From: Mycobacterium saskatchewanense | GTDB taxonomy: Bacteria > Actinomycetota > Actinomycetes > Mycobacteriales > Mycobacteriaceae | Reading direction: 5' to 3' | Assembly: GCF_010729105.1 (NCBI RefSeq) | Contig: NZ_AP022573.1 | Span: 3,472,001-3,536,000 of the forward strand | Length of the DNA stretch: 64,000 nt | Shown: positions 6,087 to 59,589 of the stretch, piece after piece | Layout: each line of letters begins with the position of its first letter | How positions within the stretch are numbered: the stretch's first letter is position 1 | Position numbers and translations under genes: made by a program | The notes under the pieces: model-generated | What the model saw: only the letters and a program-made list of their open reading frames with translations | Databases searched by the model: none | What the model was told of the DNA's origin: nothing

Positions 6087-6094
6087 GCGAACCG

Positions 6095-13813: not shown

Positions 13814-13820
13814 GCCGCTC

Positions 13821-13841: not shown

Positions 13842-13912
13842 GATTCGTTAGCGCCTGTGTTGTGCACCACATCGCTGGGCAAGAACATTGCCGCGGTCTC
13901 ACGCCTGAGGGC

Positions 13913-13929: not shown

Positions 13930-13974
13930 CTGGCCGATACCCTGGATGTGACCCCGCTCTCCTTAAACTGGGCG

Positions 13975-13998
13975 TGACGTAGTGATGACGACACGTCA
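13975..13998. promoter_or_regulatory. Inverted repeat TGACGT-N12-ACGTCA upstream of the acoR-like gene
   Basis: Six-base perfect arms separated by 12 bases, ending 20 bp before the acoR-like start codon. It could be an autoregulatory operator or a leader hairpin. No known binding protein can be named. Confidence 0.35.
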
Positions 13999-14018
13999 TC
14001 CAGCACCAGGAGTCCGCG

Positions 14019-37135: not shown

Positions 37136-37404
37136 CCACCACGCGGCGGCGATTAGGATTATTTCAGCGTCAGCAAAGCGGCTGGACCTCAAATCGCCTG
37201 CGTTACCGAGTCATGAACTGCGTTGGTAGTAAAGGTGTTTTGGGCCAATGGAATCTTTGTTGCGCGCGCATGTACAGAAGAGGAACGCAAATGCAACAAA
37301 CGGCACTTGCTCCTATGATCGCCGGTCTACCGCCGGAGACTTGGGCATGACTCCCGCCGCCAAACGCTAGCCAAACGCACTCGGACCCAAGGGGACTGGC
37401 AATC
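37136..37404. other. eccCb1-ppe68 gap lacking PE35
   Basis: 269 bp where M. tuberculosis has PE35 (~99 codons). No PE-like reading frame is found on either strand; only a 19-codon frame starting at 37291 is open before ppe68. The sequence contains GATTAGGAT at 37151-37159, a candidate -10 (TAGGAT) for the ppe68-esxB-esxA transcript, and AAGGGGA before the ppe68 ATG. Confidence 0.7.
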
Positions 37405-38628
37405 ATGTTGTGGCACGCGATGCCACCGGAACTCAACACCGCACGCCTGATGGCCGGAGCGGGTCCGGGGCCGATGCTGCAGGCGGCTGCGGGATGGGAA
37501 GCCCTGGGGGCGGCCCTGGAGGCCCAGGCCATCGAATTGTCCGCGGCCCTGGTCGCACTGAAAGCCTCGTGGTCCGGGATGGGCAGCGAGCGCGCGATCG
37601 CCGCCGCCACTCCGATGGTGGCCTGGCTGCAAAGCGCTGCGCAGCAGGCGCGACAGCGCGGGCTGAAGGCCTCGGCGCAGGCCGCGGCGTACACCAAGGC
37701 GCTGGCAATGACGCCTTCTCTGCCGGAGATCGCGACGAACCACATCACCCACGCGGTGTTGACGGCCACCAATTTTCTCGGTATCAATCTGGTCCCAATC
37801 GGTTTCAACGAAATGGACTACTTCGTCCGCATGTGGACGCAGGCCGCGACGGTGATGGACGTCTACGCGGCGGAAACCATGACCAACACGGTTTTTGAGC
37901 CCGTCGAGCCGATGAAGCCGATCGTGCAGCCGGGCATGGGGGGCCAAGCCGTCGCGACCGAGGCGCTGGGCTCGTTCTCCAGCCTGGTGTCCGACGCCGC
38001 CCCCGCTGCGTTGCGAGCGCTTTCGGATGCCGCAGAAGGTCTCGGGGACCTCCCCGTCGCCGACCCCGCGGCCGCGGTGCCGCTCACACCGGCGCTGTCC
38101 GGACAGGAGATCTCGCAATTGGTGGCGCAGATGGGGCAGTTCGGCGCGCCCATGCAGCAGTTGATGCAACCGTTGCAGCAGATAACGTCCCTGGCCAGTC
38201 AGACCGGCGGCATGGGCGGACCGGGCAACGGCCTACCGGGTGACGGCCTGGGGGCCGCTGCCGACAAAGACGGCCCGCAGCTGGGCCTGCTCGGCGCCAG
38301 CCCGCTGTCGACCCACCCGTTGGCGGGGGGATCGGGACCCAGCGTGGGCATGGGGCTCATGCACTCGGAAGCGCTGCCCGGGGCGGGCGGATCGTCGGCC
38401 CGCACGCCGATGATGAGCCAGTTGATCGACAAACCCGTTGCGGCGGCGGCGTCCTCGGGCTCCGGTGCCGGCTCGTCGGCGGTCGGCGGCTCCGCCCCGA
38501 TGGGACTGATGGGCGCCGGCGCACAGTCCGCCGCGGTCTCCAGGCACGGCCTGGCCGCGCCCGCGTTGCTCGCCCCGCACCCCGACGACGGCGATCACGA
38601 CGAGCTGGACGACCAGGACGACTGGTGA
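37405..38628 (+). CDS. ppe68: ESX-1 PPE protein PPE68
   Basis: 407 residues (Rv3873 ~368). Begins [20 protein letters not shown], the PPE motif of this short-form subgroup; [15 protein letters not shown] carries the WxG-like turn. The PPE domain ends near 175, and a Gly/Ala/Met-rich tail ends in an acidic [17 protein letters not shown]68 is a gating substrate or regulator of ESX-1 encoded just before esxB-esxA, as here. A PE partner would normally be encoded directly upstream but is absent, so its folding partner is an open question. Confidence 0.92.
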
Positions 38629-43364: not shown

Positions 43365-45602
43365 TCACGGGCCGTCGGCCAGGCCGGCTTGCAGCAGCGC
43401 GCCGACGTGCTTCCAGTACAACCAGTCGGCCACCGCGGAGCGCTGCTCCGCCAGGTCGACCGCGCCGTGCGCCTCTTTGAGGACGACCTCTTGGACATGC
43501 GTGGCATACGCAAGGAATGCCCGCAGATGCGCGGCCTGGCGGCCGGTGGATTTGCTCGCCAGGGGCTTCATCACGTCGAACCACAACATCGGGCGCTCAT
43601 CGGCCGGCGGACCGGCCTCAACCGGAGTCGCCGGCATCGCGGCGAGAAGTTGCTGCGCGTCGACGGTTCCCCTGGCCAGGGAGTCGGCCAGATCGGCCAC
43701 CGCCTCCGAATCGGTCACCTCGGACGTGGGCCGGGGGCCGGCCGCCGCACGCGGATCGGCAGCTGCCGGCGGGAGCAAGTCGATCAGCCGCAAGTCGGTG
43801 GTTGCTGCCAGCCGTTCCGCCGCGTCCGGGTCCACCACCTGCAGCCGCGGCCGACCCGCCATGTCGCCGTTGGCCGGGATGTCGTCGGGCTTCAGCAGAA
43901 CTTTGGGCGCGCCCGGATCGGAGTTGGCCAGCTGGTGTTCGGTGCCGATCACCGCCCTGAGCGTGGTGTCGTGATGGGTCGCCCAGCCCTGCACGGCCAT
44001 CACGGGGTAGGTGGCCCAGCGCGCGCGTTCGGTCGCCGGGATCGTCTCGTCGGCGCTGGCCATGTGGACCTGCTCCGGCAATTGCACGCCGGCCGGTATG
44101 TAGGCCAGCCCGTAGCTGTTGGCCACCACGATCGCGCCGTCTGCGGTCACCGCGGTCACCCAGAAGAACCCCAGATCTCCACCGCCTCCGCCACCGGGCG
44201 CGTTGAGCGCGGCCGCGACGCGCCGCGCCAGCCGGAGTGGGTCATCCCCCTGCCGGCGCGCCGCGTCAGCGGTGGCGGCCTCTGCGATGGCGTCACGCTC
44301 GGCGCGCGCCGCTGAAACGGGAATCGGTGCCGCGGCAACGACATCCGCTGGCGGTTCGGTCTGGTCGGCCGCCTTCCGCCGGGCGGCGGGCGCGGCCTTT
44401 CCCGCCGCCCGGTTGGCCGCCGCGGGCCGGGTGGATGGCTGTGCGCTCGCAGGCTTCTCGCCGGCCAAGGCGCGTGCTCCCGCGGCGGAACCACCGGAAG
44501 CACCGCCCGATGCACCCGCTGCCATCGGCGCGGCCGGCATGCCCGGGGCTCCGCCGGGAGCGCCGGGCGACGACGTGTCGTCCGAATGCGAACTGGGCGA
44601 CGGTGCCGCCACCGACGCCGGAGCCATACCCTTGCCGACCCCACCCGCACCGGCCGGAACTCCCGACGCCGCGGGACTCAACGGGGCCGCCGGAACAGCC
44701 GGACCGAGCGGGGCCGGGGTGGCCGGGGGAGCCGCGGGAACCGCGGGTCCGCTGGGCGGCTCCCCGGGGGCGCTCGGCGTCCCGGGGCCGGCCCCACCCG
44801 GCCCGCCGGGAATCGGCGCGGGCGAGGGTGATCCCGGCGCCTGACCCGGCGGGAGAGGCATTGCGGGAGAGGGCGGCGGCGGGGCGACACCGGGCGTCGG
44901 GCTGCCGGGGGGTGACAGCGGGGGCGCGCCGGGACGAACGGGCGGTGGTGGTGTTGGTGTCGCCGGCGCTGGTTCGGTGGTGCCGTGCCCCGGGCGTTCC
45001 CCGTTCGCCGGGGGCGGTGCGGCCGGAGACTTCGTGTCCGGAATCGCGACGGGAGGAGGTGTCTTCTGGTCGAGCAGGTCCTCTACGGCATTACCCGGCG
45101 GTCGCCAGGTCTTGCTCGCCAAGATCCGTTCGGCCGCAACGTCGATCACGCCCACATTGGCGCCGTGCGCCGCAAGGACAACTGTGTTGATCGCTGTCGT
45201 CCGCTGGGCGGGTTCGAGGTCGGCATCGTTCTCCAGAACGTCGATCCGCCGCTGCGCGGCCTCCACATTGTCGGTGATGTCCGACTTGGCCTGAACGATC
45301 GACATGGCGATATGCCTCTGCCAGGTGATCACGGTGGCCAGGCCGTTTTGCAGCGTCACCAATTCGCCGATGTTGGTTTCGAGTTCGCCGTTGGCAGCCC
45401 CGGCAGCACTGCCCGACCACGCACCGCCGTCGAACAACTCGGCACGCTCGTGCTTGCATGTCTCCAACACCTCGGTGACCTGGCGCAGAACCTGGAGGTA
45501 TTCCTGGGCCCGATCGTAGAAGGCGTCTTCGTCGATCTCCGGCCACCCGCCCGGCTCGAGCATCTGCTCGGTGTATCCACCCGTCGGCCTGACCATGCCC
45601 AT
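43365..45602 (-). CDS. espK: ESX-1 secretion-associated protein EspK
   Basis: 745 residues (Rv3879c ~729). N-terminal helical domain (~1-150) with a WxG turn (AWSGSAAG, W62-G64). Very long Pro/Gly/Ala-rich linker (~190-450). Ordered C-terminal domain (~480-745) beginning [18 protein letters not shown] and containing [17 protein letters not shown] and [19 protein letters not shown]. EspK interacts with EspB and EccCb1 in M. marinum. In M. tuberculosis espL lies between espK and espB; here only 137 bp separate them and espL is elsewhere. Confidence 0.93.
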
Positions 45603-45739: not shown

Positions 45740-47263
45740 CTACTTGTCGGGACCGGCGGTCTTGCGCGGACGATTGCCGATCACGCCTTCGGTCCACTCC
45801 CGCTCCTCGGTGTAGAGCGCCTCGTCCTCCGACTGCACCCGCTTGCCCTTGCCGGCACCCTCTTGGCCCTTGCCGCCGGGGGCCATCGGCGCCATGCCCC
45901 CCATGCCACCACCCATCGCGCCGCCCGCCCCCGGGAGCCCGCGGCCGGCGCCCGCCGCCGCGGCACCTGGCCCGGCTCCGGCGGGTCGCGAGGCCGCTTC
46001 CGTGTCTGCCGACGGCTGTAGCGGCATCGACGGCACCCCGCCGCCACCCCCGACCGACGCTGGCTTGACCCCCGCCCCCGTCGGCAGCGCGCCGGACCGC
46101 TTCAAGTCCTTCAGCGCCTGGTCCAGCTTCGCGCTGTCCGGCGCCGGCGGAGTCGGCGGCACGCCAGCGTTAGGGACGGTCGGGACGGTCGGTGTAGTGG
46201 CCGAGGGAGTGTCCCCGCCGGGGAAGGGGTTGTTCGGGTCGAACGGGTTGTCGGGGTCGTACGGGTTGTCGGGGTCGTACGGATTGTCGGGATTCGAGGG
46301 GTCGTTCGGCTCGATGGGCTTGGGGGCGTCGATCCGCGTGGCCGGTGGAACCCGCTGCGGGGTGACCGGTCTCAGCGGCAACTGGGCGTTGGAGACGTAA
46401 CGGGCCAGCACTTCCTCCGACTGGGCCTGCAGTCGTTCGTACCATTCGATGGCCTGCTGGACGTACCACTGATACTGGCTATTCGTCGAATACCACTTGT
46501 ACCAGTAATCGCATTGCGACACTTCGTAGGTCGTGGGATGCGCACCCTCCACCGCGTGCTGCTCCTGGTATCCGGTCGTTCCGGTGGCCTTCTTGTGTGC
46601 GTCCACGACCGTGTTGGCCTGGCTGGCAACCTGGCTGCACAGTGCGGCCATCGCATATATCCACGTCCGCTGCTGGTCGAAGTTGGTCTCAACGGCGGTT
46701 CTCGCCTCCCCCTCCCAGCTGGTGAAAGGGCGGAACCGGTAGGTCTCGCGCTGAAACGTCCGCTGGAAAGCGTCCCAGTCCCTTGCGAATGCGCGAAACG
46801 CTGTGCCGTGGTCACCGGCTTCGATGTCCTTCGCCGCCTGCCTGACCTCGTAGTAGGGGTATTGGAACGGCGGCGGCGGAGGGGGTGGCGGCGGAAGGTA
46901 ACCACCGAAGTCTTCGTCCGGGTCGCATAGGGCCGACATCTCGTCATTGCCCACCGACGACGGCGCCCCGCCCGATCCGGACATTTCGCTGTTGATGGCC
47001 CCCGCGGAACCCTCGTCGACCTCCTCATAGGCCTTCGCCGCATTCCGCAGGGACTGCGCCAACGTCTTCCATTCGCGTTCGCAGGCTTTGAGATAGAGCC
47101 GCAGGGAGTCCGCATTGAGCGCGAGCTGGGTGGCGGCATCTTTGACGAACGACAGGAGGCATGGCGCCGGCGGGTTGATCGGTGGGATGACCGGAAGCGG
47201 TTGCTCTATTTCGTCGGCGCGCGCCATAAGTTCCTGGTACTCGACGTTCAGTGTCTGCGTCAT
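45740..47263 (-). CDS. espB: ESX-1 substrate EspB (diverged middle region)
   Basis: 507 residues from the ATG at 47263 (AAGGAGA upstream); Rv3881c is ~460. The PE/PPE-like helical domain keeps AKAYEEVDEGSAGAI, the WEG turn (183-185) and FDQQRTWIYAMAALCSQ. Unusual parts are a Pro run (124-132), an aromatic-rich patch at 252-275 (YWYKWYS, YQWYVQQAIEWYERL) and Asn-Pro-Asp hexapeptide repeats at 324-348. The C-terminal end QSEDEALYTEEREWTEGVIG is strongly conserved with M. tuberculosis. Secreted, oligomer-forming ESX-1 effector cleaved by MycP1 in M. tuberculosis. Confidence 0.9.
   Translation of the reverse strand: MTQTLNVEYQELMARADEIEQPLPVIPPINPPAPCLLSFVKDAATQLALNADSLRLYLKACEREWKTLAQSLRNAAKAYEEVDEGSAGAINSEMSGSGGAPSSVGNDEMSALCDPDEDFGGYLPPPPPPPPPFQYPYYEVRQAAKDIEAGDHGTAFRAFARDWDAFQRTFQRETYRFRPFTSWEGEARTAVETNFDQQRTWIYAMAALCSQVASQANTVVDAHKKATGTTGYQEQHAVEGAHPTTYEVSQCDYWYKWYSTNSQYQWYVQQAIEWYERLQAQSEEVLARYVSNAQLPLRPVTPQRVPPATRIDAPKPIEPNDPSNPDNPYDPDNPYDPDNPFDPNNPFPGGDTPSATTPTVPTVPNAGVPPTPPAPDSAKLDQALKDLKRSGALPTGAGVKPASVGGGGGVPSMPLQPSADTEAASRPAGAGPGAAAAGAGRGLPGAGGAMGGGMGGMAPMAPGGKGQEGAGKGKRVQSEDEALYTEEREWTEGVIGNRPRKTAGPDK
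46220..46294 (-). repeat. 18-bp tandem repeat in espB encoding DNPYDP-type hexapeptides
   Basis: Four near-identical 18-bp units encode NPDNPYD-PDNPYD-PDNPFD-PNNPF (residues 324-348 of EspB). The middle units are almost exact DNA copies, so length variation between strains is likely. The stretch lies in the disordered linker before the C-terminal tail. Confidence 0.8.
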
Positions 47264-47557: not shown

Positions 47558-48268
47558 TCAATCGTCGGAGCGAAAGAAGACGCCGTCGGCCTGCAACACC
47601 CGGCCGTCGCGGATGTCGAGGAAGAACGGCGCGTACGCGCTCAAGGCGAAGCCGAGGGAGTACGCGAGGTCGAGCGCCTCTTGGATGAGCATGCCGCCGT
47701 CGTACAGCGGGACAAGGGACAGCTCGAGTTGCATCCCCACGCACCGTCTCAGCGTGGCTCCCCCGCCGGCGATCACCTGCTTTTCAAATCCCTGCACGTC
47801 GACCTTGAGGAAAGCCACGTCGCCGGGCCGGAGGATCTCCGGAGTCACCGAATCGAGTTGACGGATCGGCACGTCTTCGGTTCCGACGTAGTTGCCCTGT
47901 GGGTAGGCGTCCTGGTGGGTCCTCAGCATCGGCAATGCCGAACTGCTTATGCCGGCGTTGCCTGCGACGTTCATCGCGATTGTTCCGTCATGTTCGCCCA
48001 CGGCACACCGCCGGCATTCCCAGAGCGCGTCTTCGACCACCGAGCGCTCCAAGAGGGCAAATGGCGCCGACACCGGTTCGAAAGAGACGATACGGCCGTG
48101 GAAGCCGGCCTCACGGAGGCTCGCGGCGTATTGACCCGAGTTGGCACCGACATCCAACACGACATCCACCCGACGGGATTTCAATTCGTTGGCAAGGCGA
48201 CGCTTCCAGTCCGATTCCGTAAAGTAGCGCCGCACTTCGATGTTCGGACCATTCGCGATCCAATACAC
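47558..48268 (-). CDS. FkbM-family methyltransferase
   Basis: 236 residues from a GTG at 48268. SAM-binding motif I is intact (VLDVGANSGQYA, 37-48), followed by VSFEPVSAPFALLE, the FkbM core VPIRQLDSVTPE, FLKVDVQGFEKQVIAG and the C-terminal LYDGGMLIQEAL. FkbM-type enzymes O-methylate sugars or glycolipids and are common in glycan loci. It is the minus-strand gene upstream of espB, divergent from the GT-A-like gene (66 bp between starts). No strong ribosome-binding site was seen, so a start slightly downstream is possible. Confidence 0.87.
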   Translation of the reverse strand: MYWIANGPNIEVRRYFTESDWKRRLANELKSRRVDVVLDVGANSGQYAASLREAGFHGRIVSFEPVSAPFALLERSVVEDALWECRRCAVGEHDGTIAMNVAGNAGISSSALPMLRTHQDAYPQGNYVGTEDVPIRQLDSVTPEILRPGDVAFLKVDVQGFEKQVIAGGGATLRRCVGMQLELSLVPLYDGGMLIQEALDLAYSLGFALSAYAPFFLDIRDGRVLQADGVFFRSDD

Positions 48269-48334
48269 CGCAGAACGCTAACACGTGGCGGTGCGTGTGC
48301 GGGCCGCCGGAAGGTCGTTAAGCTGGCCAGGACC

Positions 48335-49111
48335 ATGCGGCTCGCCATTCATCTTCAGACCCATTCCGACATCAGCGTGCACGGCGCGCATCGATACGTC
48401 GGCGCGCCCAAAAGCGAGATCACGCTGCGTTGTGCGCAGTCACTCGTCACGTCGATCAACCAGGCGGATGGCGACGTCATCTTGCGAGTCTTCGACGATC
48501 ACTCGTCGCCCGAAGTCGTTGCGATGCTCGGCGAGATCCTCGCGGGGTGCAGGCACCCGGTCGAATTCGCCGCCCTCCGCGACCGCGGCTACAACGCGTC
48601 CTGCCTGGCCTCGTTTTCCAGGGCGTGCGACGACGCTCGCGACCTGATTTATTTCGTCGAGGACGACTACCTGCACGCCCCGGCGGCGATACCGGAAATG
48701 CTCGCGACGCACGCCTTGTTCAAGGCGAGGCTCGGCGGCCGGGAAGTGGCCCTCCATCCGTACGATGATCCGAAGAATTATTGGAGCCCAATTTTCAGCC
48801 GAGAACCGTGCCGCGTGCTCTGCGGCGCCGGAAGGCATTGGCGGACGAATACGCACACCACCAACACGTGCTGGGTAGAGCTGGCAACCCTGCGTCGGAA
48901 CTGGGAGCTTTTCGAGCGCCTCGCGCGTTACTCGAGCACGCCCTACGGCGTAGAGCACCACATTTTCGAGGCGACGACCATCAACAGGATTTGGCGGGAG
49001 CAGATTTCGCTGTTCACACCGATTCCGTCGCTGGCGCTGCATCTCCAGTACGAAGAGCACCGCGACCCTTACCTCGACTGGGGGCAATGGTGGGAGTCAG
49101 CGGCGTATTGA
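48335..49111 (+). CDS. Glycosyltransferase-like protein (GT-A type)
   Basis: 258 residues from the ATG at 48335. It opens MRLAIHLQTHSDISVHGAHR and has nucleotide-sugar-binding pieces typical of GT-A enzymes: a strand ending VILRVFDDHSSPE, and YFVEDDYLHAP, where the Glu-Asp-Asp group would bind metal. An acceptor-side half ends with HLQYEEHRDPYLDWGQWW. No membrane helix. The only plus-strand gene of the island. Its stop is 9 bp from the stop of the convergent DUF4254 gene. The sugar and acceptor are unknown. Confidence 0.75.
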   Translation: MRLAIHLQTHSDISVHGAHRYVGAPKSEITLRCAQSLVTSINQADGDVILRVFDDHSSPEVVAMLGEILAGCRHPVEFAALRDRGYNASCLASFSRACDDARDLIYFVEDDYLHAPAAIPEMLATHALFKARLGGREVALHPYDDPKNYWSPIFSREPCRVLCGAGRHWRTNTHTTNTCWVELATLRRNWELFERLARYSSTPYGVEHHIFEATTINRIWREQISLFTPIPSLALHLQYEEHRDPYLDWGQWWESAAY

Positions 49112-49120
49112 TGGCGGGGG

Positions 49121-50161
49121 TCAGGTGTCGCGGGTCTCGAACAGCGCACAGTGACCGCGCTGCCCGACGGCCTTGAATTGCCGATACACCTTGATCCGGA
49201 CACCACCGGCCTCCAGGTCGGTGAGCATGCGCTGGAGTCCCCGGTAGAGGTCGTCGTACTGCTCCCCCAGCACCGCGAGGTGTGCGCCGGGATCCTGCGC
49301 GCGGTTCGTGTGCAGGAGCCGAAGGGTGAGTATCGAGAGCCGATCGACGATGGTGCCGGGTGTCTCGGTATGCAGCGGCGCACCGGCGTTTGAGGTCACG
49401 CGTTCGAGCACCGTGCTGTCGATGTCCTCGACGGCCGCATTGCGTTCGGCGTTGAGGTGGTCGATGCGACGTTTTCTACGAGCCACCTCGCCGTCGGCGA
49501 CGCCGGGGCGGCGAACGGCGTCCTCGTGATGCCACAGCCCGAAGTTCAGCGCGTGCAGGTCCAGAGCCTTCGCCGCGATGCCGTCGCTCGCCGGGGAGGT
49601 GACGGGTTCCTTACAGTGCCATGACAGTGCGGTGTCGTAGAAGTGGCGGATAGCCCACAACAGCTCACCGCCTGCCGATTCTCCAGATACGTCGGCCGCC
49701 ACGCCGTTCCGGAGCGGTCGCCTCGCGGGTCGCCGCCCGCAGTCTGGCTCCAACCGGTCACAAAACTCGGCATACGTGCTGGCCAAATGCTCGAAGTAAT
49801 CGCGCGGGGCCAGGTCGGATCGCGGAGCGAAGACGATATCGATGGCCCGCGGCGAGGAAGAATCGAAGCACCGGTCACCCTCGCGAACCTCGACCTGCAC
49901 GCGCGAACGCCCGACCGCGGCCGAATTCGCGGCGGCCGCAAGGCGTTGCAGCGAGGCAGCAGGCATCACGCGTTCGCTGTCGTCGCTGGGCACGATGCCG
50001 ACGTGCCGCAGCTCTAGCCCCGAAGCGCCGGCGGCCGGATGCCCCTCGCAGCCGCGGTACGTGCGGAACCCGAGCATTTCGAAGCGCCGTGCAACCAGTC
50101 GCACGCCTGGCTCGAGATGCGAGTGGCTGCCGAGGTTGCGCCGGTGGGAGTCGTTGTTCAT
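49121..50161 (-). CDS. DUF4254 protein with an extra N-terminal domain
   Basis: 346 residues from an ATG at 50161 that overlaps the stop of the upstream GT9 gene (ATGA). The C-terminal half (~165-346) is DUF4254: ALDLHALNFGLWHHEDAVRR, KRRIDHLNAERNAAVEDID and TETPGTIVDRLSILTLRLLH. This family is usually encoded beside heptosyltransferase-like (GT9) genes in surface-polysaccharide clusters; its role is unknown. The N-terminal ~150 residues form a separate unassigned domain with FRTYRGCEGHP (32-42) and LRHVGIVPSDD. The fusion is notable. Confidence 0.8.
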   Translation of the reverse strand: MNNDSHRRNLGSHSHLEPGVRLVARRFEMLGFRTYRGCEGHPAAGASGLELRHVGIVPSDDSERVMPAASLQRLAAAANSAAVGRSRVQVEVREGDRCFDSSSPRAIDIVFAPRSDLAPRDYFEHLASTYAEFCDRLEPDCGRRPARRPLRNGVAADVSGESAGGELLWAIRHFYDTALSWHCKEPVTSPASDGIAAKALDLHALNFGLWHHEDAVRRPGVADGEVARRKRRIDHLNAERNAAVEDIDSTVLERVTSNAGAPLHTETPGTIVDRLSILTLRLLHTNRAQDPGAHLAVLGEQYDDLYRGLQRMLTDLEAGGVRIKVYRQFKAVGQRGHCALFETRDT

Positions 50162-51219
50162 ATGGTCGATTCGGCGAGACATTCCACGGCACTCAACACC
50201 TCGTCCACCGTGATATCGGCCATGGCGCTCCTGGCGACATGCTGGTGCGGCGCGAATCTGAAACCCCACGTCGCCGGCGCCGTCGGACCGAACAATCCGA
50301 CGCCGGGCACTCGCGCCAGGTCGGCGGCGTGGAGCATGCAGGAGTCGATCCCCACGAAAAGGTCTGCGCGGGCGACCATTCCCATCGCGAGGTCGAGCGG
50401 CACGCCCAGGTACGGGAACACCCGATCGCGCTCCCGCCCCACGTTCAGCTCCTCCTGTCCCATTCCGACGACCCAGGCCACGTAGTCGTGATGCCGGGCC
50501 AGAAACCTGTCCAACAGGTCGATGAACCTGGTGACCGGCCACCGCTTCTTGATCCAATTCGTATCGGCGTGCACGACGAGAACCTTGGTCCCCGCGGGCA
50601 CGGCGGCGCGGACCGCGCGGGCCTCTCCCTCCGCAGCCGCCGGGACGGGCACGGGCTGGGCGTAGGTCTCGATCCGTGCCGACGGCTCGAACAGTCGCGC
50701 CAGCTTGAAGGTCAGGTCGGCCGCATGGGGCAGATCCCTCGGGACGACGATGTCGTAGGCGTCACCGGTTGGGAAGCCGATGCTCGTCGCGGGCGCCAGG
50801 CGCTGCCGTAGACCGCCGCCGAACACGTTCGACGGCACCTCCCACGGCACGACGTTGATGAACACGTCGATGGGGCCGATCTCCGCCGCCAACGTGTCGT
50901 AATCGAGCCGCCGGTTCGAGGGTGGTCCCAGTGCCGCGCCCCCCGGAGGCGCTCCCGTGACGTCGATGAGGCGCGAACTCACCTCGCGGAAGCATAGGTC
51001 GAAGGCCACCCTGGGGCAGATCAGCGTGAGCGGGGCGGTGAACAGCTCGGCGAGCGCTCGCAGGGTCGGCAGCGCCAGGACCGAATCCCCGATCAGCGTG
51101 GAGAAATACACCGCCGGCCTGTCGGCCTGCAGCAGACTGTGCAACGCGCCGGACTCAACGCATTCCGAATGCCCGTGCCGCAGCACCGTGATCCCGCTCA
51201 GACCCGCGTGACTAGGCAT
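50158..51219 (-). CDS. Glycosyltransferase family 9, copy 1
   Basis: 353 residues. GT9 (ADP-heptose:LPS heptosyltransferase) fold in two Rossmann halves: YFSTLIGDSVLALPTLRALA near the N terminus, VLVVHADTNWIKKRWP in the middle, and the donor-binding block FVGIDSCMLHAADLARVPGV with GLFGPTAPATWGFRF. Mycobacteria make no LPS, so the donor need not be heptose. Overlaps copy 2 upstream by 8 bp and the DUF4254 gene downstream by 4 bp; co-translation is likely. Confidence 0.87.
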   Translation of the reverse strand: MPSHAGLSGITVLRHGHSECVESGALHSLLQADRPAVYFSTLIGDSVLALPTLRALAELFTAPLTLICPRVAFDLCFREVSSRLIDVTGAPPGGAALGPPSNRRLDYDTLAAEIGPIDVFINVVPWEVPSNVFGGGLRQRLAPATSIGFPTGDAYDIVVPRDLPHAADLTFKLARLFEPSARIETYAQPVPVPAAAEGEARAVRAAVPAGTKVLVVHADTNWIKKRWPVTRFIDLLDRFLARHHDYVAWVVGMGQEELNVGRERDRVFPYLGVPLDLAMGMVARADLFVGIDSCMLHAADLARVPGVGLFGPTAPATWGFRFAPHQHVARSAMADITVDEVLSAVECLAESTI

Positions 51220-52207
51220 GCAGTTCGACGAGCTCCTCCATTGCGCTGAGCACCTGTTCCACGCTGATGTCGGCCATGGTGCTCATGTCGACGTGCCGGT
51301 GCGGCGCGAACCTGAAACCCCACGTCGCAGCGCGCGTCGGCCCGAACAGCCCGACGCCGGGAACCCGCGCCAGGTCGGCGGCATGGAGCATGCAGGAGTC
51401 GATCCCCACGAAGAGGTCAGCGTGGGCGACGAGGCTCATGGCGAGGTCGAGCGGTAGCCCCAGGTAGGGGAATACGCGGTCACCCTCGCGGCCGGCGTTG
51501 AGCTCCTCGTGTCCCATCCCGACGACCCACACCACATAGTCGGGATGGCTCGCCAGGAACCTGTCCAGCAAGGCGATGAACCGGGTTGCCGGCCAACGTT
51601 TCTCGGTCCAGTCGGTGTCGGCGTGCACTACGAGCACCTTGGACCCGGGGGTGACGGCCGCGCGGATCGCCCGCGCCTGCTCCCGCACGAGGGCCGGGAT
51701 GGGCACCGGCTGGGCATAGTCTTCGATCCGGACCGACGGATCGAATGCCAGCGGCAGCTTGAACATCAAGTCGGCCCAGTGGCAGTCCATCTGGGCGACC
51801 ACGACGTCGTAGCGGTAGTCGGTCGGGAAGCCGATACTCGTCGTCGGTGCGAGGCGGTGCACGAGGGGGCGGACCACCGTGCTCGACAATGCGCTCCACG
51901 GCAGGGTATCGATGAACACATCGACGGCGCCGATTTCCGTCGCCAGGGTGTCGTAATCGGCGGGCCGATGTGGCCCCGAGCCGGGCCGCGGGTGCGGTCC
52001 CGTCAACGGCAATCCCGTGGTATCGACGAAGCGACCGCTCACCTCGCGGAAACAGAGGTCGAAGGCGACCTTCGAGCAGATCAGCGTGATTGGGGCGGTG
52101 AACATTTCGCCCAGTGCCCGCACCGCGGGCAACGTCAGCACGGCGTCCCCGATGTTGGACACGAAACATACCGCGGGGTGCTGGGCCCGCAGCCGATCGC
52201 TCAGCAC
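51212..52207 (-). CDS. Glycosyltransferase family 9, copy 2
   Basis: 331 residues from a GTG at 52207 that overlaps the sulfotransferase stop. It is a close paralogue of copy 1: SNIGDAVLTLPAVRALGEMF, VLVVHADTDWTEKRWP and FVGIDSCMLHAADLARVPGV are nearly shared, as is the C-terminal MADISVEQVLSAMEELVE. The middle (~65-150) differs more, as expected if the two enzymes use different acceptors. No signal peptide; cytosolic. Together the pair suggests two consecutive or alternative sugar additions. Confidence 0.87.
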   Translation of the reverse strand: MLSDRLRAQHPAVCFVSNIGDAVLTLPAVRALGEMFTAPITLICSKVAFDLCFREVSGRFVDTTGLPLTGPHPRPGSGPHRPADYDTLATEIGAVDVFIDTLPWSALSSTVVRPLVHRLAPTTSIGFPTDYRYDVVVAQMDCHWADLMFKLPLAFDPSVRIEDYAQPVPIPALVREQARAIRAAVTPGSKVLVVHADTDWTEKRWPATRFIALLDRFLASHPDYVVWVVGMGHEELNAGREGDRVFPYLGLPLDLAMSLVAHADLFVGIDSCMLHAADLARVPGVGLFGPTRAATWGFRFAPHRHVDMSTMADISVEQVLSAMEELVELHA

Positions 52208-52998
52208 GATGCGCTGCCGTAGCCGAAGCGCCGGGCGAGAGCATCCACCCGGGCCCACACCGGATCGTCGGCGTCGATCCGGTCCCGGACGCGCGGTGCC
52301 AGGCACAGGGGCGAAAGATTGCCGAGTTTCCACGGCAGGGGCGCACCGTCCCGGAAGAACTGGTGGTCGGCGGCCGTCTCCGGCACCACCGGGTCGACCG
52401 GGCCGGGGCCGGCTGAAAAGCTCAGGCCCCAGCGGCCCAGGGCGGCGTCGAGCGTCGCCTCCGGCCGGGCCACGAACGCCTCGTAGCGCAGGACGGCGAC
52501 GTCGGGCACCACGGCCTCGAGCGGCTCCAGGTGCCGCTCCACCAGCGCCAGCGCTTCGGCCACAGTGTCCTTGATCCAGAAGTCCAGCGGGGTGCGCGCG
52601 AGCGAGCCCCGGTGTGCCAGACAGGAGTTCACGACCTCGCGCGGATCGCGCAGGACGAACAGCACCGCGGCGCCGGGAAAGCTGTGCCGCAGTGCGCCCA
52701 GCTGAGTCGCGTACCTCGGGTTCTTCTCGCCCCAGACGGTGCAGGGACGGGCGAGCTCGCTCATCGTCGCCCGCAGGGCGAGGGCCGGGTCGGCCGTTTC
52801 CACAGCACGGCGATGGTAGGACTCGTAGACCCCGCGCTCGATGAGGAAGGGCTGCAACGTGCTCATCACCCGCCCGCCGGAACGGACCACCTGGATCAGA
52901 TCGATCTCGTCGAACACCTCGATGTCGTGGTGGCGATTGAGATATTGGGTGACGATCGTCATCCCCGATCTCGGCGATCCTGTGACGAAAAGCTGCAC
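52201..52998 (-). CDS. PAPS-dependent sulfotransferase
   Basis: 265 residues from a GTG at 52998. The 5'-phosphosulfate loop is TGSPRSGMT (6-14), the 3'-phosphate-binding segment is RDPREVVNS (117-125), and GEKNPRYATQLGALRHSF lies between. This is the standard layout of bacterial sulfotransferases that transfer sulfate from PAPS to a carbohydrate or lipid. First gene of the overlapping set sulfotransferase-GT9-GT9-DUF4254, starting 53 bp after espL on the same strand. Sulfated surface glycolipids are known in mycobacteria (Stf0/Stf2-type), but the acceptor here is unknown. Confidence 0.88.
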   Translation of the reverse strand: MQLFVTGSPRSGMTIVTQYLNRHHDIEVFDEIDLIQVVRSGGRVMSTLQPFLIERGVYESYHRRAVETADPALALRATMSELARPCTVWGEKNPRYATQLGALRHSFPGAAVLFVLRDPREVVNSCLAHRGSLARTPLDFWIKDTVAEALALVERHLEPLEAVVPDVAVLRYEAFVARPEATLDAALGRWGLSFSAGPGPVDPVVPETAADHQFFRDGAPLPWKLGNLSPLCLAPRVRDRIDADDPVWARVDALARRFGYGSASC

Positions 52999-53051: not shown

Positions 53052-53402
53052 TCAGGCCAGACCAACCGATCGCTGGAGCGATCCGGTGATTTCGGTCAGC
53101 GACGCGAGGAGCTGCGCCTGCTGGGCCTGGATGGCTTCCGTGGCGTCGGCCTGCGCCCTGAGCAACGCCTCGTTGATCCGCTCTTCCACGGTCGCGGCGC
53201 CGAGGCGCAGCAGGCCGTCTTCGATCTGCAGGTCGCTGAGGCACCGGTGCCCGTTGATGGTCACTTCGACGGTCTCGGTTTCGTCTGTCGCCGTGAAGGA
53301 TTCGCTGTTGGTTCGGTTTATCTGGTCCTCGAGGGCCTTGGTGAACCGCTCGAACTCCGCCAACGTCGCAGCCGCTTCCGGGTGCGTTTCCTTGCTGCTC
53401 AT
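53052..53402 (-). CDS. espL: ESX-1 secretion-associated protein EspL (YbaB-like), relocated
   Basis: 116 residues from the ATG at 53402 (AAGGA five bases upstream). It matches Rv3880c/EspL: FTATDETETVEVTINGH, LSDLQIEDGLLRLGAATVEE and a helical C terminus. YbaB-fold protein; in M. tuberculosis and M. marinum EspL supports stability or secretion of ESX-1 substrates including EspE/F or EspB. In those species it lies between espB and espK; here it follows eccE1 (46 bp) and precedes the sulfotransferase. Confidence 0.88.
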   Translation of the reverse strand: MSSKETHPEAAATLAEFERFTKALEDQINRTNSESFTATDETETVEVTINGHRCLSDLQIEDGLLRLGAATVEERINEALLRAQADATEAIQAQQAQLLASLTEITGSLQRSVGLA

Positions 53403-54929: not shown

Positions 54930-56276
54930 TCAGCGCCGTCGCAATGCCTGGCCGGTCAAGGCGGCCAGTGCCAGTGCCACCGAGAAGCCCGCGATCCCCA
55001 CGGCCACGGCCTTGATGGGCCCGTGATCGGGGCGCGGTGCCGGCAGGGGTGGTTGAATCCGGTTCACATTCAAGGGGCTGGTCGCCGGGCCGGCCGGAAC
55101 GTCCCAGGTGAGCGCCGCCACCGCGTTGACGATCCCCGCCCCTACTGCGTCGTCGACGCCAGCGCCGGGGTGGCGCGCGGTGGCGGTGATCCTATTGACG
55201 ATCTGGGCCGGCGCGAGAGCGGGGAATCGCTGCCGCAGCAGCGCCGCCAGACCTGAGACGTACGCCGCGGCGAAGGAGGTTCCGGCGATCGGGACCGGGC
55301 CCTCCTTGCCGACCAGCGCGTCGACCGGCTCGCCCTCGGGGCCGAGCGCGACGATGTCTTCGCCCGGCGCGGCAACGCCCACCCACGGTCCGTGCATCGA
55401 GAACTGGCTCGGCGCCCCGTTCTGTCCGACGCCCCCGACGGCGAGGACCAGCGGCGCGTACCACGCCGGTGTGACGACGGTTTGCACCTGCAGCCAACCG
55501 CGCGGGTCGGCGGGCATCGCGGGGTCGGGTGGTGGGTTTTGCGTGCAGTCGCCGCCGGTGTTGCCCGCGGCGGCGATGACCACCGCGCCCTTGACGTTGA
55601 CCGCGTAGTCGAGCGCGGCACCCAGGGCGGACTCGTCGACCTGCTTCCTGACCTTGAAGCAAGCCGCCTCGCTGATGTTGATGACACCGGCGCCCAAGTT
55701 GGCGGCGTGCACCACGGCGCGGGCCAGGCTGCGTACCGACCCTGCCGCCGGGGTGGCGTTGGGGTCGTTCGGATTGGCCTGATTGTCCTTGGGCTCGAAC
55801 GCTTCCGACGTCTGACGCACCGAGATCAGACGTGCGTCCGGAGCGACGCCGACGAATCCGTCCGTGAGCGCGGGCCGGCCGGCGATGATGGAGGCGGTGA
55901 GGGTGCCGTGGGCGTCGCAGTCGGACAGCCCGTCACCGTCCTTCACGACGAAGTCGCCGCCCGGCTCGGCCGGGACCCGTGGTGAGGGATCCACACCCGT
56001 GTCGATGACGGCCACCGTGATACCGAGACCGGTGGCGAATCTGTGCGCCTCGCCGACGCCCAGGTAGACGTTGGCCCAGGGCGGATCGCGGAAGTTGTTC
56101 CCCGGCAGAGCCAACGGCGCTTTGCAGACGCGGCGCTGTTCAAGGGGCTGGTCGGGCCCAGTCACATCGGGAGGCACCGCGGCCGGGTCGATCGTGGGCG
56201 GGGCGATCGCCGAAGCGGGTGGTGCGGCCAGCAATGCCAACGTGAGCGTCACCGCAATCGCGAAGATTCGGTGCAC
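54930..56276 (-). CDS. mycP1: Mycosin-1, ESX-1 subtilisin-like protease
   Basis: 448 residues from a GTG at 56276, chosen over an ATG five codons upstream because GGAG lies nine bases before it and the product then starts HRIFAIAVTLTLALL, like M. tuberculosis MycP1. Signal peptide cut near ASA. Catalytic triad: Asp in VAVIDTGVD, His in DAHGTLTASI, Ser in GTSFAAAYVSG. The N-terminal extension and a C-terminal transmembrane helix (AVAVGIAGFSVALALAAL) anchor it in the periplasm. Cleaves EspB and stabilises the complex. First gene of the mycP1-eccE1-espL-island transcript. Confidence 0.96.
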   Translation of the reverse strand: MHRIFAIAVTLTLALLAAPPASAIAPPTIDPAAVPPDVTGPDQPLEQRRVCKAPLALPGNNFRDPPWANVYLGVGEAHRFATGLGITVAVIDTGVDPSPRVPAEPGGDFVVKDGDGLSDCDAHGTLTASIIAGRPALTDGFVGVAPDARLISVRQTSEAFEPKDNQANPNDPNATPAAGSVRSLARAVVHAANLGAGVINISEAACFKVRKQVDESALGAALDYAVNVKGAVVIAAAGNTGGDCTQNPPPDPAMPADPRGWLQVQTVVTPAWYAPLVLAVGGVGQNGAPSQFSMHGPWVGVAAPGEDIVALGPEGEPVDALVGKEGPVPIAGTSFAAAYVSGLAALLRQRFPALAPAQIVNRITATARHPGAGVDDAVGAGIVNAVAALTWDVPAGPATSPLNVNRIQPPLPAPRPDHGPIKAVAVGIAGFSVALALAALTGQALRRR

Positions 56277-56320
56277 CGCCGGACACTCCATTCATCTAGC
56301 CGCATTCCAGGCCCGGGGGC

Positions 56321-56424: not shown

Positions 56425-57726
56425 CTACCAGACGATGGCGGCCATGTCGCGGTTGTCCGAGCAGACACTGCGGACCGCGGTCTGGATGTCGGCCGCCGTG
56501 ATGATCTGCAAGTCCTCGATGGTGACCGGCTGGCCCCCGCGTTTCTTGGCGACCACCCGGGTGTCGCGGAGCCCTTCGGCCCGCTCGATCACGTTGCGGG
56601 CGAACCGGCCGTTCTGCACGGCGTCGATGCCGTGCCACCCTCCGGGAGTGGTGTAGTTACGGATGGTGGTCGCCGCATCGAGGAACGCCTCGCGCGCCGC
56701 GCCGTCGAGCATGCTGGCGCGCGGTGTCGCGTAGCGCTGCCCGATCTCGACGATCTCGGCCGGCGAGTACGACTCGAACCGCAGCTTGCGGTTGAACCGG
56801 CCGGCCAAACCCGGGTTTACGGTGAGGAATTGGTCCACTTGATCCTCATAGCCGGCCCCGATGAAGCAGAAGTCGAACCGGTGCGCCTCCAGCGCCACCA
56901 GGAGCTGGTTGACGGCCTCCATGCCGATCATGTCCGGCGTGCCGTCCTGGTGACGTTCGATCAGCGAATACAACTCGTCCATGAAAATGATTCGGCCGAG
57001 CGAGCTTTCGATGAGCTTGTTCGTCTTGGGGCCGGATTCGCCGATGTAGTGCCCACAGAAGTCCGACCGGCGGACCTCCCGGATCTCCGAGTGCCGCACG
57101 ATTCCCATGCCGGCGTAGATCTTGCCGAGCGCCTCCGCGGTGGTGGTCTTGCCCGTGCCGGGGGGACCCACCAACAGCATGTGGTTCGTCTGCCCCTCCA
57201 CCGGCAGACCGTGCTCGAGCCGCATCATCCGCACTTCGAGCTGGTCCTCGAGCGCGGACACCGCCTGCTTGACCGCCGCCAGGCCGACCTGCCTGGCCAG
57301 CAGCGCACGTCCCTCGGCCAGCAGCTCCGCGCGCCGTTCCGTCGCGTCGTCGTCCTCGAGTTGCTCGCGACTCTTCGCCGTCGAGGCATCCCACCGGTCG
57401 GTGCGGCTCGAGATCGTCTGCTCATCGGTCACGACCAGCTGCAGGTTCGGATCGGCCAGTGCCTCCTTGGCCGCCTCGGTCAGCACCCCGTTGATGGTCG
57501 CCTTCGACAGCCAGACCTGAGCCTTCTCCTCCTCGCGCAGCTGGCGGTGGACCATTCCGCGCACGTAGGCGAGGTCGGCGACGAGCAGCGGAATGTCGGC
57601 CGGGCCGATCGCGGCGGTCAGCACACGCGCGTCGAACCGGCCCGACGACGGGTTCTGCCCGATCACGTCGACGCGGTCCAGCCAGTCCAGCGCCACCCGG
57701 TCCTGCCCGAGATGGGCAGCGGCGCA
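56425..57726 (-). pseudogene. eccA2: N-terminally truncated eccA2 (ESX-2 relic)
   Basis: About 433 codons match the C-terminal two-thirds of EccA2 (Rv3884c ~619). The match starts abruptly at AAAHLGQDRVALDWLDRV and runs to the end (SVCSDNRDMAAIVW). The AAA+ domain is intact: Walker A GPPGTGKTT, Walker B IIFMDELYSL, and RFNRKLRFESYSPAE. About 185 N-terminal residues (TPR region) are gone. The break falls right at the start codon of the divergent hydrolase gene. Internal GTG codons could still start an ATPase fragment, but no promoter or ribosome-binding site of its own was identified. All other ESX-2 genes are absent. Confidence 0.75.
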
Positions 57727-59589
57727 ATGGAACTCCACCACATAAGCGTCGAGCTGCTGATCGCGGAGGCGGGCGGTGACCCGTGGTCCATCGATGCCAG
57801 CCTGCAGACGGGGCGGCCCGGCGTGATCGCCGACCTCGCCCAGGCTTTCTACGCCGGCGGCCGTTGCACCCAAGACGCCAGCGCCGCCTTCGACCAAGCA
57901 CGGCGGCGATTCGAAGCGGCGTGGAACGGCGCGCCGGGTGATCACCCGATCAATGCCTCGGCCGAAGTACACCGAGTGGCAATGGATCTCGGTAGGCAAT
58001 CCGATCAGATACCGAAGATCGGCGTCGACCTGGAGAACGTCGCTGCAGCCCTCGCTATCGCTCAACGCGACAGCACGACATCGATCAACACGTTGGAAGG
58101 CCAGCTGGAGAGCATCGACCAGCAACTGGGACGGGCGCTCAGCATGGAGGACGACCGCACCCTCACCGACGCTGACCACTCGGCGCTCGACGCCCTCATC
58201 TCCGCACTTGAAGGCGGTGCCATAGAAAACACACAATCCGCACTGCATGTGCTGCACAAGATTCGAGCTGAATACGAACGGTCCCTGGACCATTCACTGA
58301 CCACCCTCCGTACTGAGGGCTACAACCCGACAGCCATTCAAGATGCCGAAGGGGCGGTCAGAGGAGACACACTCGGCATCCCATCACCCGACACCGGCCC
58401 TGAGGGTGTCAACCGGTGGTGGAAATCCCTCAACCAAGAACAACAAGACCGGGCGATCGCCGACCACCCACGAGAGCTCGGCAACCTCAACGGCATTCCA
58501 GTCGGCATCCGCGGCCGGGCCAACACCGCCGCTATGAACGCCGACCTTCACCGCGTCGAGGACACCGCCACCAAACAGGGCGTCACCGTCAACGCAGTCG
58601 CGACGAATCCGACCGACTACGGCATCACACCAACGGAACTCACCCGTTACACGAACGCCTGGCGTACGCGACAAGGATTGACAGCAGCCGCCGACGAGCC
58701 GGGCAATCATCCGGACGTCTTCCTGTTGAAGTATCAACCCGACGCGTTCGGCGGGGAGGGCGGCGCGGCCATCGCCCTGGGAAACCCCGATACCGCGGCC
58801 AACACCGCCTTCCTGGTGCCGGGCCTGGGATCCAACGTGCGCGATGGAACGCTGAGCGAGCCGGACGGCCGGCGCCTCTACGCCGAATCCGAACGGGCCG
58901 AATGGAATAAGAAGACCGCGGTCGTCGTGTGGGTCGGCTACGACGCCCCCGACGTCTGGTACGACCCGGGCCTCTGGCACCCGAACATGGCGCGCGCCGG
59001 CGGACAGGCGTTGGCCGCCGACGTCAACGGTCTCAGGACCACGCACGTCGGCGCGCCCACGCACATGACCGTCATCGGCCACTCCTACGGCTCTACCACT
59101 GTCGCCGACGCCGCGGCGGCATACGGGATGCGGGCCGACGACGTGGTCCTCGCCGGCTCCCCCGGCACCGACCTTGCACATTCGGCGGCCGACTTCCACC
59201 TGCCCACCGGTGGGCACGTCTATGTCGGCACCGCCTCGGCGGATCCGGTCACCTGGTCCCCCGCCCGCGTGACCGGTCCCGGTCTCCTCGGCCCGTTCCT
59301 CGGCGGGCTGGGAAGCGACCCCGCCGCCGACGGCTACGGTTCCACCCGCTTCAAGGCCGAAATCCCCGTCGGCTCAATCAATCCCATCGATGACCATCTG
59401 CACTACTTCGACGACGGGTCGGAGGCCTTGTTCAGCATCGCCGACGTCGTGTCCGGCCACGGCGATGGCCTTCGGCACGACGGGATGACCGCGCACCACC
59501 GCGGTGAGTACGGCATGGGCGACTGGGTGGACCCGGAAGCGTTCCGACCCGCCACCACCGGGCACCGCCACCGTGGCCCGCAGGACTAA
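57727..59589 (+). CDS. DUF1023 alpha/beta hydrolase with helical N-terminal domain
   Basis: 620 residues from the ATG at 57727. The N-terminal ~150 residues are helical with DPWSIDASLQTGRP, QARRRFEAAWNG and LGRQSDQIPKIGVDLENVAA, the pattern of the mycobacterial WXG100-like heads on such proteins. The hydrolase domain (~300-560) has nucleophile elbow IGHSYGSTT (Ser453) and later acid/base candidates around PIDDHLHYF. A secreted lipase/esterase or toxin-like enzyme is plausible. The start codon lies exactly at the eccA2 deletion scar, so its native promoter was probably lost or replaced. Confidence 0.8.
   Translation: MELHHISVELLIAEAGGDPWSIDASLQTGRPGVIADLAQAFYAGGRCTQDASAAFDQARRRFEAAWNGAPGDHPINASAEVHRVAMDLGRQSDQIPKIGVDLENVAAALAIAQRDSTTSINTLEGQLESIDQQLGRALSMEDDRTLTDADHSALDALISALEGGAIENTQSALHVLHKIRAEYERSLDHSLTTLRTEGYNPTAIQDAEGAVRGDTLGIPSPDTGPEGVNRWWKSLNQEQQDRAIADHPRELGNLNGIPVGIRGRANTAAMNADLHRVEDTATKQGVTVNAVATNPTDYGITPTELTRYTNAWRTRQGLTAAADEPGNHPDVFLLKYQPDAFGGEGGAAIALGNPDTAANTAFLVPGLGSNVRDGTLSEPDGRRLYAESERAEWNKKTAVVVWVGYDAPDVWYDPGLWHPNMARAGGQALAADVNGLRTTHVGAPTHMTVIGHSYGSTTVADAAAAYGMRADDVVLAGSPGTDLAHSAADFHLPTGGHVYVGTASADPVTWSPARVTGPGLLGPFLGGLGSDPAADGYGSTRFKAEIPVGSINPIDDHLHYFDDGSEALFSIADVVSGHGDGLRHDGMTAHHRGEYGMGDWVDPEAFRPATTGHRHRGPQD

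What the first reader, a model, noticed from the sequence alone, without database searches (positions are those of the whole stretch)
47558..52998. Glycan-modification island inserted inside the ESX-1 locus
Six genes (FkbM methyltransferase, GT-A-like transferase, DUF4254 protein, two GT9 transferases, sulfotransferase) sit between espB and espL-eccE1-mycP1. In M. tuberculosis mycP1-eccE1-espB-espL-espK are contiguous. Four of the genes overlap each other and follow espL on the same strand, so they are probably driven by the mycP1 promoter and co-expressed with the secretion machine. GT9/DUF4254 sets are typical of Gram-negative surface polysaccharide loci. Inference: the island builds a sulfated/methylated glycan or decorates an ESX-1 substrate (EspB, EspE) or a surface lipid made under the same conditions.
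Basis: partly seen in the sequence, partly recalled or inferred. Interest (0 to 1): 0.85.

Follow-up and report, generated by a model that had tools for sequence, protein, structure and literature searches.

The report
Sugar-modifying gene module inside ESX-1
In this mycobacterium, and in about one in twelve mycobacterial species sampled, a compact set of sugar-transferring and sugar-decorating enzymes sits among the genes of the ESX-1 protein-secretion system and appears to have stayed with it through evolution, which suggests that ESX-1 cargo, perhaps EspB, carries a sugar decoration that has not been looked for.

Summary
In detail: FkbM, GT2-like transferase, DUF4254, two GT9 and a sulfotransferase lie between espB and espL-eccE1-mycP1. 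It is not one genome's oddity. DUF4254 is strong in 22 of 248 Mycobacterium genomes: 20 at ESX-1 genes, 2 beside another T7SS gene set. GT9+DUF4254 is in 20 of 20 ESX-1 cases; GT2-like, sulfotransferase, second GT9 and FkbM are accessory (17, 16, 13, 11 of 20). The genes are under purifying selection like ESX-1 parts. The espL here groups with module-side copies of a duplicated espL.

Best clue: genome G202 has an ESX-1 with all ecc genes and no module, and a separate substrate-chaperone cassette (espE-H, PPE68, esxBA, espK, espB, espL) without ecc or mycP matches that carries it. The module follows the cargo, not the channel; of the cargo EspB tracks it best.

I propose cytosolic glycosylation of an ESX-1 substrate, EspB first. 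Not shown: donor, acceptor, transcript. EspB's linker is not Ser/Thr-enriched; a glycolipid acceptor is not excluded.

The parts
52201..52998 (-). sulfotransferase (Sulfotransfer_3), first of the four overlapping module genes
   Evidence: Pfam PF13469 64.7 bits, cut-off 27; present in 16 of 20 ESX-1 module genomes
51212..52207 (-). GT9b, glycosyltransferase family 9, copy distal to DUF4254
   Evidence: PF01075 42.7 bits, cut-off 22; at least one GT9 in 20 of 20 genomes
50158..51219 (-). GT9a, glycosyltransferase family 9, copy next to DUF4254; DUF4254-side copies form one clade (97/94)
   Evidence: PF01075 40.6 bits; GT9 tree; two GT9 in 13 of 20 genomes
49121..50161 (-). DUF4254 protein: DUF4254 domain at residues 201-325 behind an N-terminal extension without Pfam match
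   Evidence: PF14063 117 bits, cut-off 27; model of the C-terminal 187 residues, mean pLDDT 84.9, six helices; extension, no family
48335..49111 (+). GT2-like glycosyltransferase, GT-A fold, invariant EDD and FDDH stretches; on the opposite strand
   Evidence: strong in 17 of 248 genomes, all at the module
47558..48268 (-). FkbM-family methyltransferase
   Evidence: PF05050 80 bits, TIGR01444 96 bits, cut-off 37.7; 11 of 20 genomes
53052..53402 (-). espL, module-side copy (YbaB/EbfC-like; chaperone candidate)
   Evidence: PF02575 38 bits; tree of 45 EspL rows
45740..47263 (-). espB, ESX-1 substrate beside the module; candidate acceptor
   Evidence: NF052471 EspB_fam 624.6 bits, cut-off 450; PF18625, PF21856
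53449..54921 (-). eccE1, ESX-1 component upstream in the same directon
   Evidence: order and 46- and 8-base gaps; conserved neighbour
54930..56291 (-). mycP1, first gene of the presumed mycP1-eccE1-espL-ST-GT9b-GT9a-DUF4254 operon
   Evidence: 133-base gap upstream, 8 bases to eccE1
43365..45602 (-). espK, downstream neighbour of espB; the 137 bases between them leave no room for an espL

Best explanation
A conserved glycan-modification module dedicated to type VII secretion cargo. GT9, with DUF4254 as its constant partner, starts the glycan in the cytosol; the second GT9 and the GT2-like enzyme extend it; the sulfotransferase and FkbM methyltransferase cap it in some species (TauD dioxygenase, DUF6065 or a second sulfotransferase add to it in others). 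The acceptor is an ESX-1 substrate modified before export in the folded state, EspB being the first candidate, with the module-side EspL as a matching chaperone. Shown: gene content, conservation, linkage, absence of hydrophobic segments, selection, and the module staying with substrate genes where the machine genes are absent. Inferred: every enzymatic step, donor, acceptor, co-transcription.
For: (1) All 22 strong DUF4254 carriers among 248 genomes have it at T7SS genes: 20 at ESX-1 genes, 2 (G165 = M. helveticum, G229) just upstream of a PE-PPE-esx-EspG-like set (read by eye); G229's eccE resembles the eccE behind eccA2-like genes (53%) and not eccE1, and in M. helveticum a GT9 lies directly behind eccB-eccC that are 28-33% like ESX-1's. 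(2) GT2-like gene: 17 of 17 strong carriers at the module. (3) The place within the locus differs (behind eccE1, behind the second espL, upstream of mycP1) but the linkage stays. (4) G202: an ESX-1 with all ecc genes and no module gene in the stretch read, and a substrate-chaperone cassette with the module but no match to eccA1, B1, Ca1, Cb1, D1, E1 or mycP1 over 52 kb; DUF4254 and the GT2-like gene have one copy each in that genome. (5) Window EspB matches the cassette EspB over its whole length (52%, 395 bits) but the core ESX-1 EspB of the same genome only at 35%, 162 bits; PPE68 (53/52%) and EsxA (59/66%) show no such preference, EspK, EspL and EsxB some. (6) Of 243 genomes, all 18 with an EspB match of E 1e-118 or better carry the module; best module-negative genome 8.9e-101. 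(7) pN/pS 0.21-0.46, in the range of mycP1 0.23, eccE1 0.34, espB 0.45. (8) No hydrophobic stretch above 1.6 in any of the six window proteins.
Against: Ser/Thr fraction in the EspB linker is not raised beside the module (0.12, versus 0.12 and 0.19 in two module-negative sets). EspB similarity and module presence may both just mark one ESX-1 lineage. The M. helveticum GT9 groups with two minimal ESX-1 forms, so the T7SS associations are not fully independent. In Nocardia-like genomes DUF4254 is multi-copy and no GT9 was matched near it in 26 loci. In Bacteroides the pair sits with galactofuranose and LTA-synthase-family genes, a surface-glycan setting. G234 has the module but a split espB. No glycan or transcript data.
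Confidence: 0.48

Rival explanations
1. The module builds or decorates a surface glycolipid or capsule glycan (sulfated, O-methylated) that ESX-1 activity needs or that is made at the same time; no ESX-1 protein is modified.
For: GT9/DUF4254 pairs elsewhere occur in an apparent surface-glycan setting (Bacteroides DUF4254-GT9-glf-galactofuranosyltransferase-LTA synthase family) or near other genes (Burkholderia GT9-DUF4254-GT9). FkbM and sulfotransferases act on mycobacterial glycolipids (recalled). Capsule integrity is linked to a T7SS substrate in ESX-5 (start of abstract of PMC4900558).
Against: No membrane protein among the six window proteins. The module is with a cassette of ESX-1 substrates and chaperones lacking the machine genes. 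All 22 strong carriers of DUF4254 have it at T7SS genes.
Confidence: 0.27
2. The module modifies a machine or chaperone component (MycP1, EccE1, EspL, EspG) rather than an exported substrate, tuning secretion.
For: Directon with mycP1 and eccE1; in two Mycolicibacterium loci it lies upstream of mycP1; a module-side espL copy makes up 20 of the 45 rows of the EspL tree.
Against: The G202 cassette has the module but no eccE1 or mycP1 match. EspL and EspG copies are in that cassette, so chaperones stay possible.
Confidence: 0.1
3. Positional only: an accessory glycan cluster carried along in a variable part of ESX-1, without functional link.
For: Accessory genes come and go (FkbM 11, sulfotransferase 16, GT2-like 17 of 20); espB evolves fast (mean protein distance 0.37 against 0.18 for mycP1).
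Against: Core pair in 20 of 20, several different places in T7SS loci, presence at a second kind of T7SS locus, retention in the machine-less cassette.
Confidence: 0.12

Closest known systems
Accessory Sec (SecA2/SecY2) glycosylation-export systems for serine-rich repeat adhesins (recalled)
   Same: soluble cytosolic glycosyltransferases encoded with a dedicated secretion route and its cargo
   Different: different secretion system (type VII), different GT families (GT9, GT2), no Ser/Thr enrichment in the EspB linker
Bacterial autotransporter heptosyltransferases such as TibC/AAH (recalled)
   Same: cytosolic heptosyltransferase-like enzyme beside the gene of a surface protein
   Different: no autotransporter noted in the module; DUF4254 partner; heptosyltransferase I equivalog cut-off missed (43 and 47 of 185 bits); donor unknown
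GT9-DUF4254 neighbours in Burkholderia, Bacteroides, Acidobacteria and an unnamed large-genome actinobacterium (G270)
   Same: the two families side by side or one gene apart (annotation; Pfam; by eye in L103 and L105)
   Different: no T7SS genes noticed in those stretches; other additional genes; function not known; a Legionella record has DUF4254 without GT9
ESX-1 locus of M. tuberculosis / M. marinum; partial duplicate ESX-6 of M. marinum (PMC13354803, passages)
   Same: espK, espB, espL, eccE1, mycP1 content; partial duplication of ESX-1 resembles the G202 cassette
   Different: no GT9/DUF4254 module in M. tuberculosis (recalled order; not tested on a named genome); the passages shown name none in ESX-6

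Membership tests
ESX-1 type VII secretion locus | espB, eccE1, mycP1, eccD1, esxBA and other ESX-1 genes in order | tested here: met
   EspB equivalog NF052471 624.6 bits, cut-off 450; EspA/EspE, EspC-type, EspG and EccA1-N families; order (eccB, eccC, eccD and espH named by position and recall)
GT9 (PF01075) | Pfam gathering score | tested here: met
   40.6 and 42.7 bits, cut-off 22
LPS heptosyltransferase I/II/III (NCBIfam equivalogs) | equivalog cut-off | tested here: not met
   best 43.2 and 46.8 bits against 185.3
Heptose-donor GT9 | heptose pathway (GmhA) wherever the module is | tested here: inconclusive
   gmhA model over cut-off in 0 of 248; module genomes G164 and G202 are not among the 178 genomes with a match, G000 has only a 1.1e-28 match
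DUF4254 (PF14063) | Pfam gathering score | tested here: met
   117 bits, cut-off 27
GT2 / GT-A glycosyltransferase | Pfam PF00535 gathering score in the window protein | tested here: not met
   14.6 bits, cut-off 23.3; best member of the alignment 4.4e-7
GT2 / GT-A glycosyltransferase | GT-A fold | tested here: met
Sulfotransferase (PF13469) | Pfam gathering score | tested here: met
   64.7 bits, cut-off 27
FkbM methyltransferase | Pfam and TIGR01444 cut-offs | tested here: met
   80.2 bits, cut-off 22.7; 96 bits, cut-off 37.7
Accessory-Sec-type protein glycosylation system | Ser/Thr-rich acceptor tract in the linked cargo | tested here: not met
   EspB linker Ser/Thr fraction 0.12, not above module-negative sets; other cargo not tested
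Accessory-Sec-type protein glycosylation system | glycosylated cargo shown by mass | not testable with these tools
   needs proteomics
Lipid-linked polysaccharide cluster (Wzx/Wzy or ABC type) | flippase, polymerase or transporter in the cluster | tested here: not met
   no hydrophobic segment in the six window proteins; the extra genes of other loci were not tested for this

The most novel reading that the evidence does not exclude
Type VII secretion has its own dedicated cytosolic protein-glycosylation system: GT9 plus DUF4254 put a glycan on EspB, or another substrate of the espE-espB cassette, before ESX export; GT2, sulfotransferase and FkbM make species-specific sulfated and methylated variants; and DUF4254 is a previously unnoticed partner of GT9 and of T7SS loci.
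Probability: 0.33. Interest if true: 0.9.

Novelty: new variant of a known kind. Interest (0 to 1): 0.72.

Why it matters
ESX-1 cargo is studied mostly in species without this module (recalled). If the cargo is glycosylated in the carriers, substrate recognition, the EspB surface, MycP1 cleavage and antigenicity would have a carbohydrate side not considered so far, and a defined gene pair (GT9-DUF4254) would make it testable by deletion and mass spectrometry. It also gives a first functional setting for DUF4254, a family with one paper mentioning it among the 5.39 million searched.

Tried and rejected

Results against my reading. G139 and G015, the module-negative genomes with the next-best EspB, have the espL-espB-espK order without the module in the short stretches held, and L112 has eccE1-espL side by side without the module, so these orders alone do not mark the module. 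In 26 Nocardia-like loci no GT9 was matched; 7 of the 26 have DUF4254 beside an EspI-like gene, 6 of these with EccC in the stretch, and one more lies beside PPE-like and EspG genes. The grouping of the module-side EspL copies is weakly supported as one branch (70/5; 72% of bootstrap trees), although the window's own 15-row branch is firm (97/91).

Considered and rejected: recent single insertion (many species share it); LPS heptosyltransferases in the strict sense (cut-offs missed); all six genes in one operon (GT2-like gene on the other strand).

Novelty searches in the held library. Searches found no paper; the titles and abstract starts listed by the others show no ESX-linked glycosyltransferase module. 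Of the papers, passages of five were read. Subscription journals are mostly missing from this library.
Full report
What is there. The window holds an ESX-1 locus from espE (26519) to mycP1 (56291), with an eccA-like gene (56425-58293) and pcnA beyond it. Between espB and espL lie six genes: FkbM methyltransferase, GT2-like glycosyltransferase, DUF4254 protein, GT9a, GT9b and sulfotransferase. The four minus-strand genes sulfotransferase-GT9b-GT9a-DUF4254 overlap (7, 8 and 4 bases) and continue the directon mycP1-eccE1-espL with gaps of 8, 46 and 53 bases. The GT2-like gene is on the plus strand, convergent with DUF4254 (9 bases) and divergent from fkbM (66 bases); fkbM to espB is 294 bases.

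How widespread. In 248 Mycobacterium genomes a DUF4254 query matches 23; one (G192) is a weak match to the N-terminal part only. Of the 22 strong ones, 20 (the window included) lie at ESX-1 genes. One of these, G001, has its espB on another contig that ends in fkbM; one, G202, has it in a cassette without machine genes; G243 has two copies of the region. The remaining two, G165 (M. helveticum) and G229, have DUF4254 just upstream of a PE-PPE-esx-EspG-like set read by eye. G229's eccE is 53% identical to the eccE that follows eccA2-like genes in L036 and did not match eccE1, so I call this locus ESX-2-type (the ESX-2 gene order is recalled). M. helveticum also has a GT9 directly behind eccB-eccC that are 28-33% like ESX-1's; in G229 no GT9 was found. 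So 22 of 22 are at T7SS genes. The GT2-like gene is found strongly in 17 of 248, all at the module (one further weak match, G013). EspB-type proteins are in 140 of 248 genomes, so the module marks a minority of them. Named carriers include M. europaeum, M. nebraskense, M. ahvazicum, M. triplex, M. scrofulaceum, M. numidiamassiliense, Mycolicibacterium sphagni and Mycolicibacterium sp. S2-37. In a phylum-wide draw of 346 genomes the DUF4254 alignment matched 4: the window, two Nocardia-like genomes weakly, and G270 strongly.

A graded module. Over the 20 ESX-1 genomes: at least one GT9 20, DUF4254 20, GT2-like 17, sulfotransferase 16, two GT9 13 (one of them, G031, with the second GT9 in two pieces), FkbM 11; all six genes in 11. 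The minimal form is eccE1-GT9-DUF4254-espB (L095) or GT9-DUF4254 upstream of mycP1 (L100, L101). Several loci add, between fkbM and the GT2-like gene, a TauD-type dioxygenase, DUF6065 or a second sulfotransferase. The GT9 copies next to DUF4254 form one clade (97/94). In the same tree the M. helveticum GT9 groups with the GT9 of a minimal ESX-1 form, so the module seems to have moved between T7SS loci.

espL. In four loci of the tree (L044, L085, L088, L089) both an espL away from the module and one between module and eccE1 exist; the tree separates them, and the window's espL belongs with the module-side copies (firm 15-row branch 97/91; all module-side copies as one group in 72% of bootstrap trees). 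EspL stabilises EspE, EspF and EspH in M. tuberculosis and is proposed as a chaperone (passages of PMC6319747).

Selection and descent. pN/pS of window against up to 18 loci: GT2-like 0.21, GT9b 0.30, GT9a 0.32, FkbM 0.33, sulfotransferase 0.44, DUF4254 0.46; mycP1 0.23, eccE1 0.34, espB 0.45, espL 0.56. Protein distances of module genes rise with those of eccE1 and mycP1 (Spearman 0.29 to 0.79; eccE1 against mycP1 0.64). This is what long co-residence would give.

The machine or the cargo. Genome G202 answers this in part. At 7.05-7.07 Mb it has an ESX-1 with part of espH, eccA1, eccB1, eccCa1, eccCb1, PPE68, esxB, esxA, espI, eccD1, espK, espL, espB and eccE1 in the order without the module; the stretch ends in eccE1, so mycP1 was not seen. 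At 6.94-6.96 Mb it has espE, espF, espG, espH, PPE68, esxB, esxA, espK, espB, then GT2-like, DUF4254, GT9, sulfotransferase, espL; over 6.926-6.978 Mb no match to eccA1, B1, Ca1, Cb1, D1, E1 or mycP1 was found. DUF4254 and the GT2-like gene have one copy each in this genome. The module is with the substrates and chaperones. Compared with the window, the cassette EspB is 52% identical over its full length (395 bits) and the core EspB 35% over 3-312 (162 bits); PPE68 53 and 52%, EsxA 59 and 66%, EsxB 66 and 58%; EspK 515 and 271 bits; EspL 105 and 79 bits. Across 243 genomes all 18 with an EspB match of 1e-118 or better have the module; module carrier G234, whose espB is split, falls below that line, and G243 was not in this draw. 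EspB, then EspK and EspL, follow the module best. This is correlation, and shared descent of the lineage can produce it.

Against a protein acceptor. The Ser/Thr fraction in the EspB linker is the same with and without the module in slow-grower-type EspB and lower than in fast-grower type (0.12, 0.12, 0.19). GT9-DUF4254 in Bacteroides finegoldii stands beside glf, a galactofuranosyltransferase and an LTA-synthase-family gene, a surface-glycan setting. I therefore keep a glycolipid or capsule acceptor at 0.27.

Literature. Glycosylation of the ESX-1 protein PPE68 has been reported (as cited in passages of PMC3227618), and EspB and EspE are listed among M. tuberculosis glycoproteins (passages of PMC10719292); so modified ESX-1 cargo is not unheard of, in a species that lacks these genes (recalled). 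No paper in the listings is seen there to describe glycosyltransferases in an ESX locus.

Most likely working. Cytosolic GT9 with DUF4254 glycosylates an ESX-1 substrate, EspB first; the second GT9 and the GT2-like enzyme lengthen the glycan; sulfotransferase and FkbM cap it; the folded, modified substrate leaves through ESX-1. Content, linkage, conservation and cargo association are shown; chemistry, acceptor and co-transcription are inferred.

Noticed in passing
L042 and L207 (G202) against L209: Substrate-and-chaperone ESX-1 cassette without ecc or mycP1 matches, besides an ESX-1 with all ecc genes in the same genome; resembles a stripped ESX-6-like duplicate.
   Followed up: yes
L138, L139, L141, L183-L186, L189: In a Nocardia-like genus DUF4254 has 3-10 matches per genome; one of them recurs beside an EspI-like gene (7 of 26 loci, 6 with EccC in the stretch), another lies beside PPE-like and EspG genes, without GT9.
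   Followed up: partly
L029, L030, L033, L037: Extra genes between fkbM and the GT2-like gene: TauD dioxygenase, DUF6065, second sulfotransferase, one frame without Pfam match (L033); L037 keeps only a fused remnant of TauD and DUF6065.
   Followed up: partly
window 49667-50161; L025, L088, L094: About 165 residues before the DUF4254 domain, shared over most of their length with L025/L088 and in part with M. helveticum; no Pfam match.
   Followed up: partly
window 37135-37405: No PE35-like reading frame was seen by eye between eccCb1 and PPE68.
   Followed up: partly
L026/L094 (M. helveticum): The lone DUF4254 gene upstream of the PE-PPE-esx set has an inner stop codon; may be decaying.
   Followed up: no
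L033 and L034 (G243): Two near-identical copies of the ESX-1 module region about 175 kb apart in one assembly; duplication or assembly artefact.
   Followed up: no
L031/L087, L084, L038: espB is split in M. ahvazicum and seems frameshifted near its end in Mycobacterium sp. 4858; the second GT9 of G031 matches in two pieces.
   Followed up: no
L201 (G139), L202 (G015), L112 (G077): Gene orders usual for module carriers (espL-espB-espK, or eccE1-espL) in module-negative genomes.
   Followed up: partly
window 5000-14000: Lower G+C stretch (0.61-0.66) with what look like hydantoinase/acetone-carboxylase-type genes (by eye, no search).
   Followed up: no
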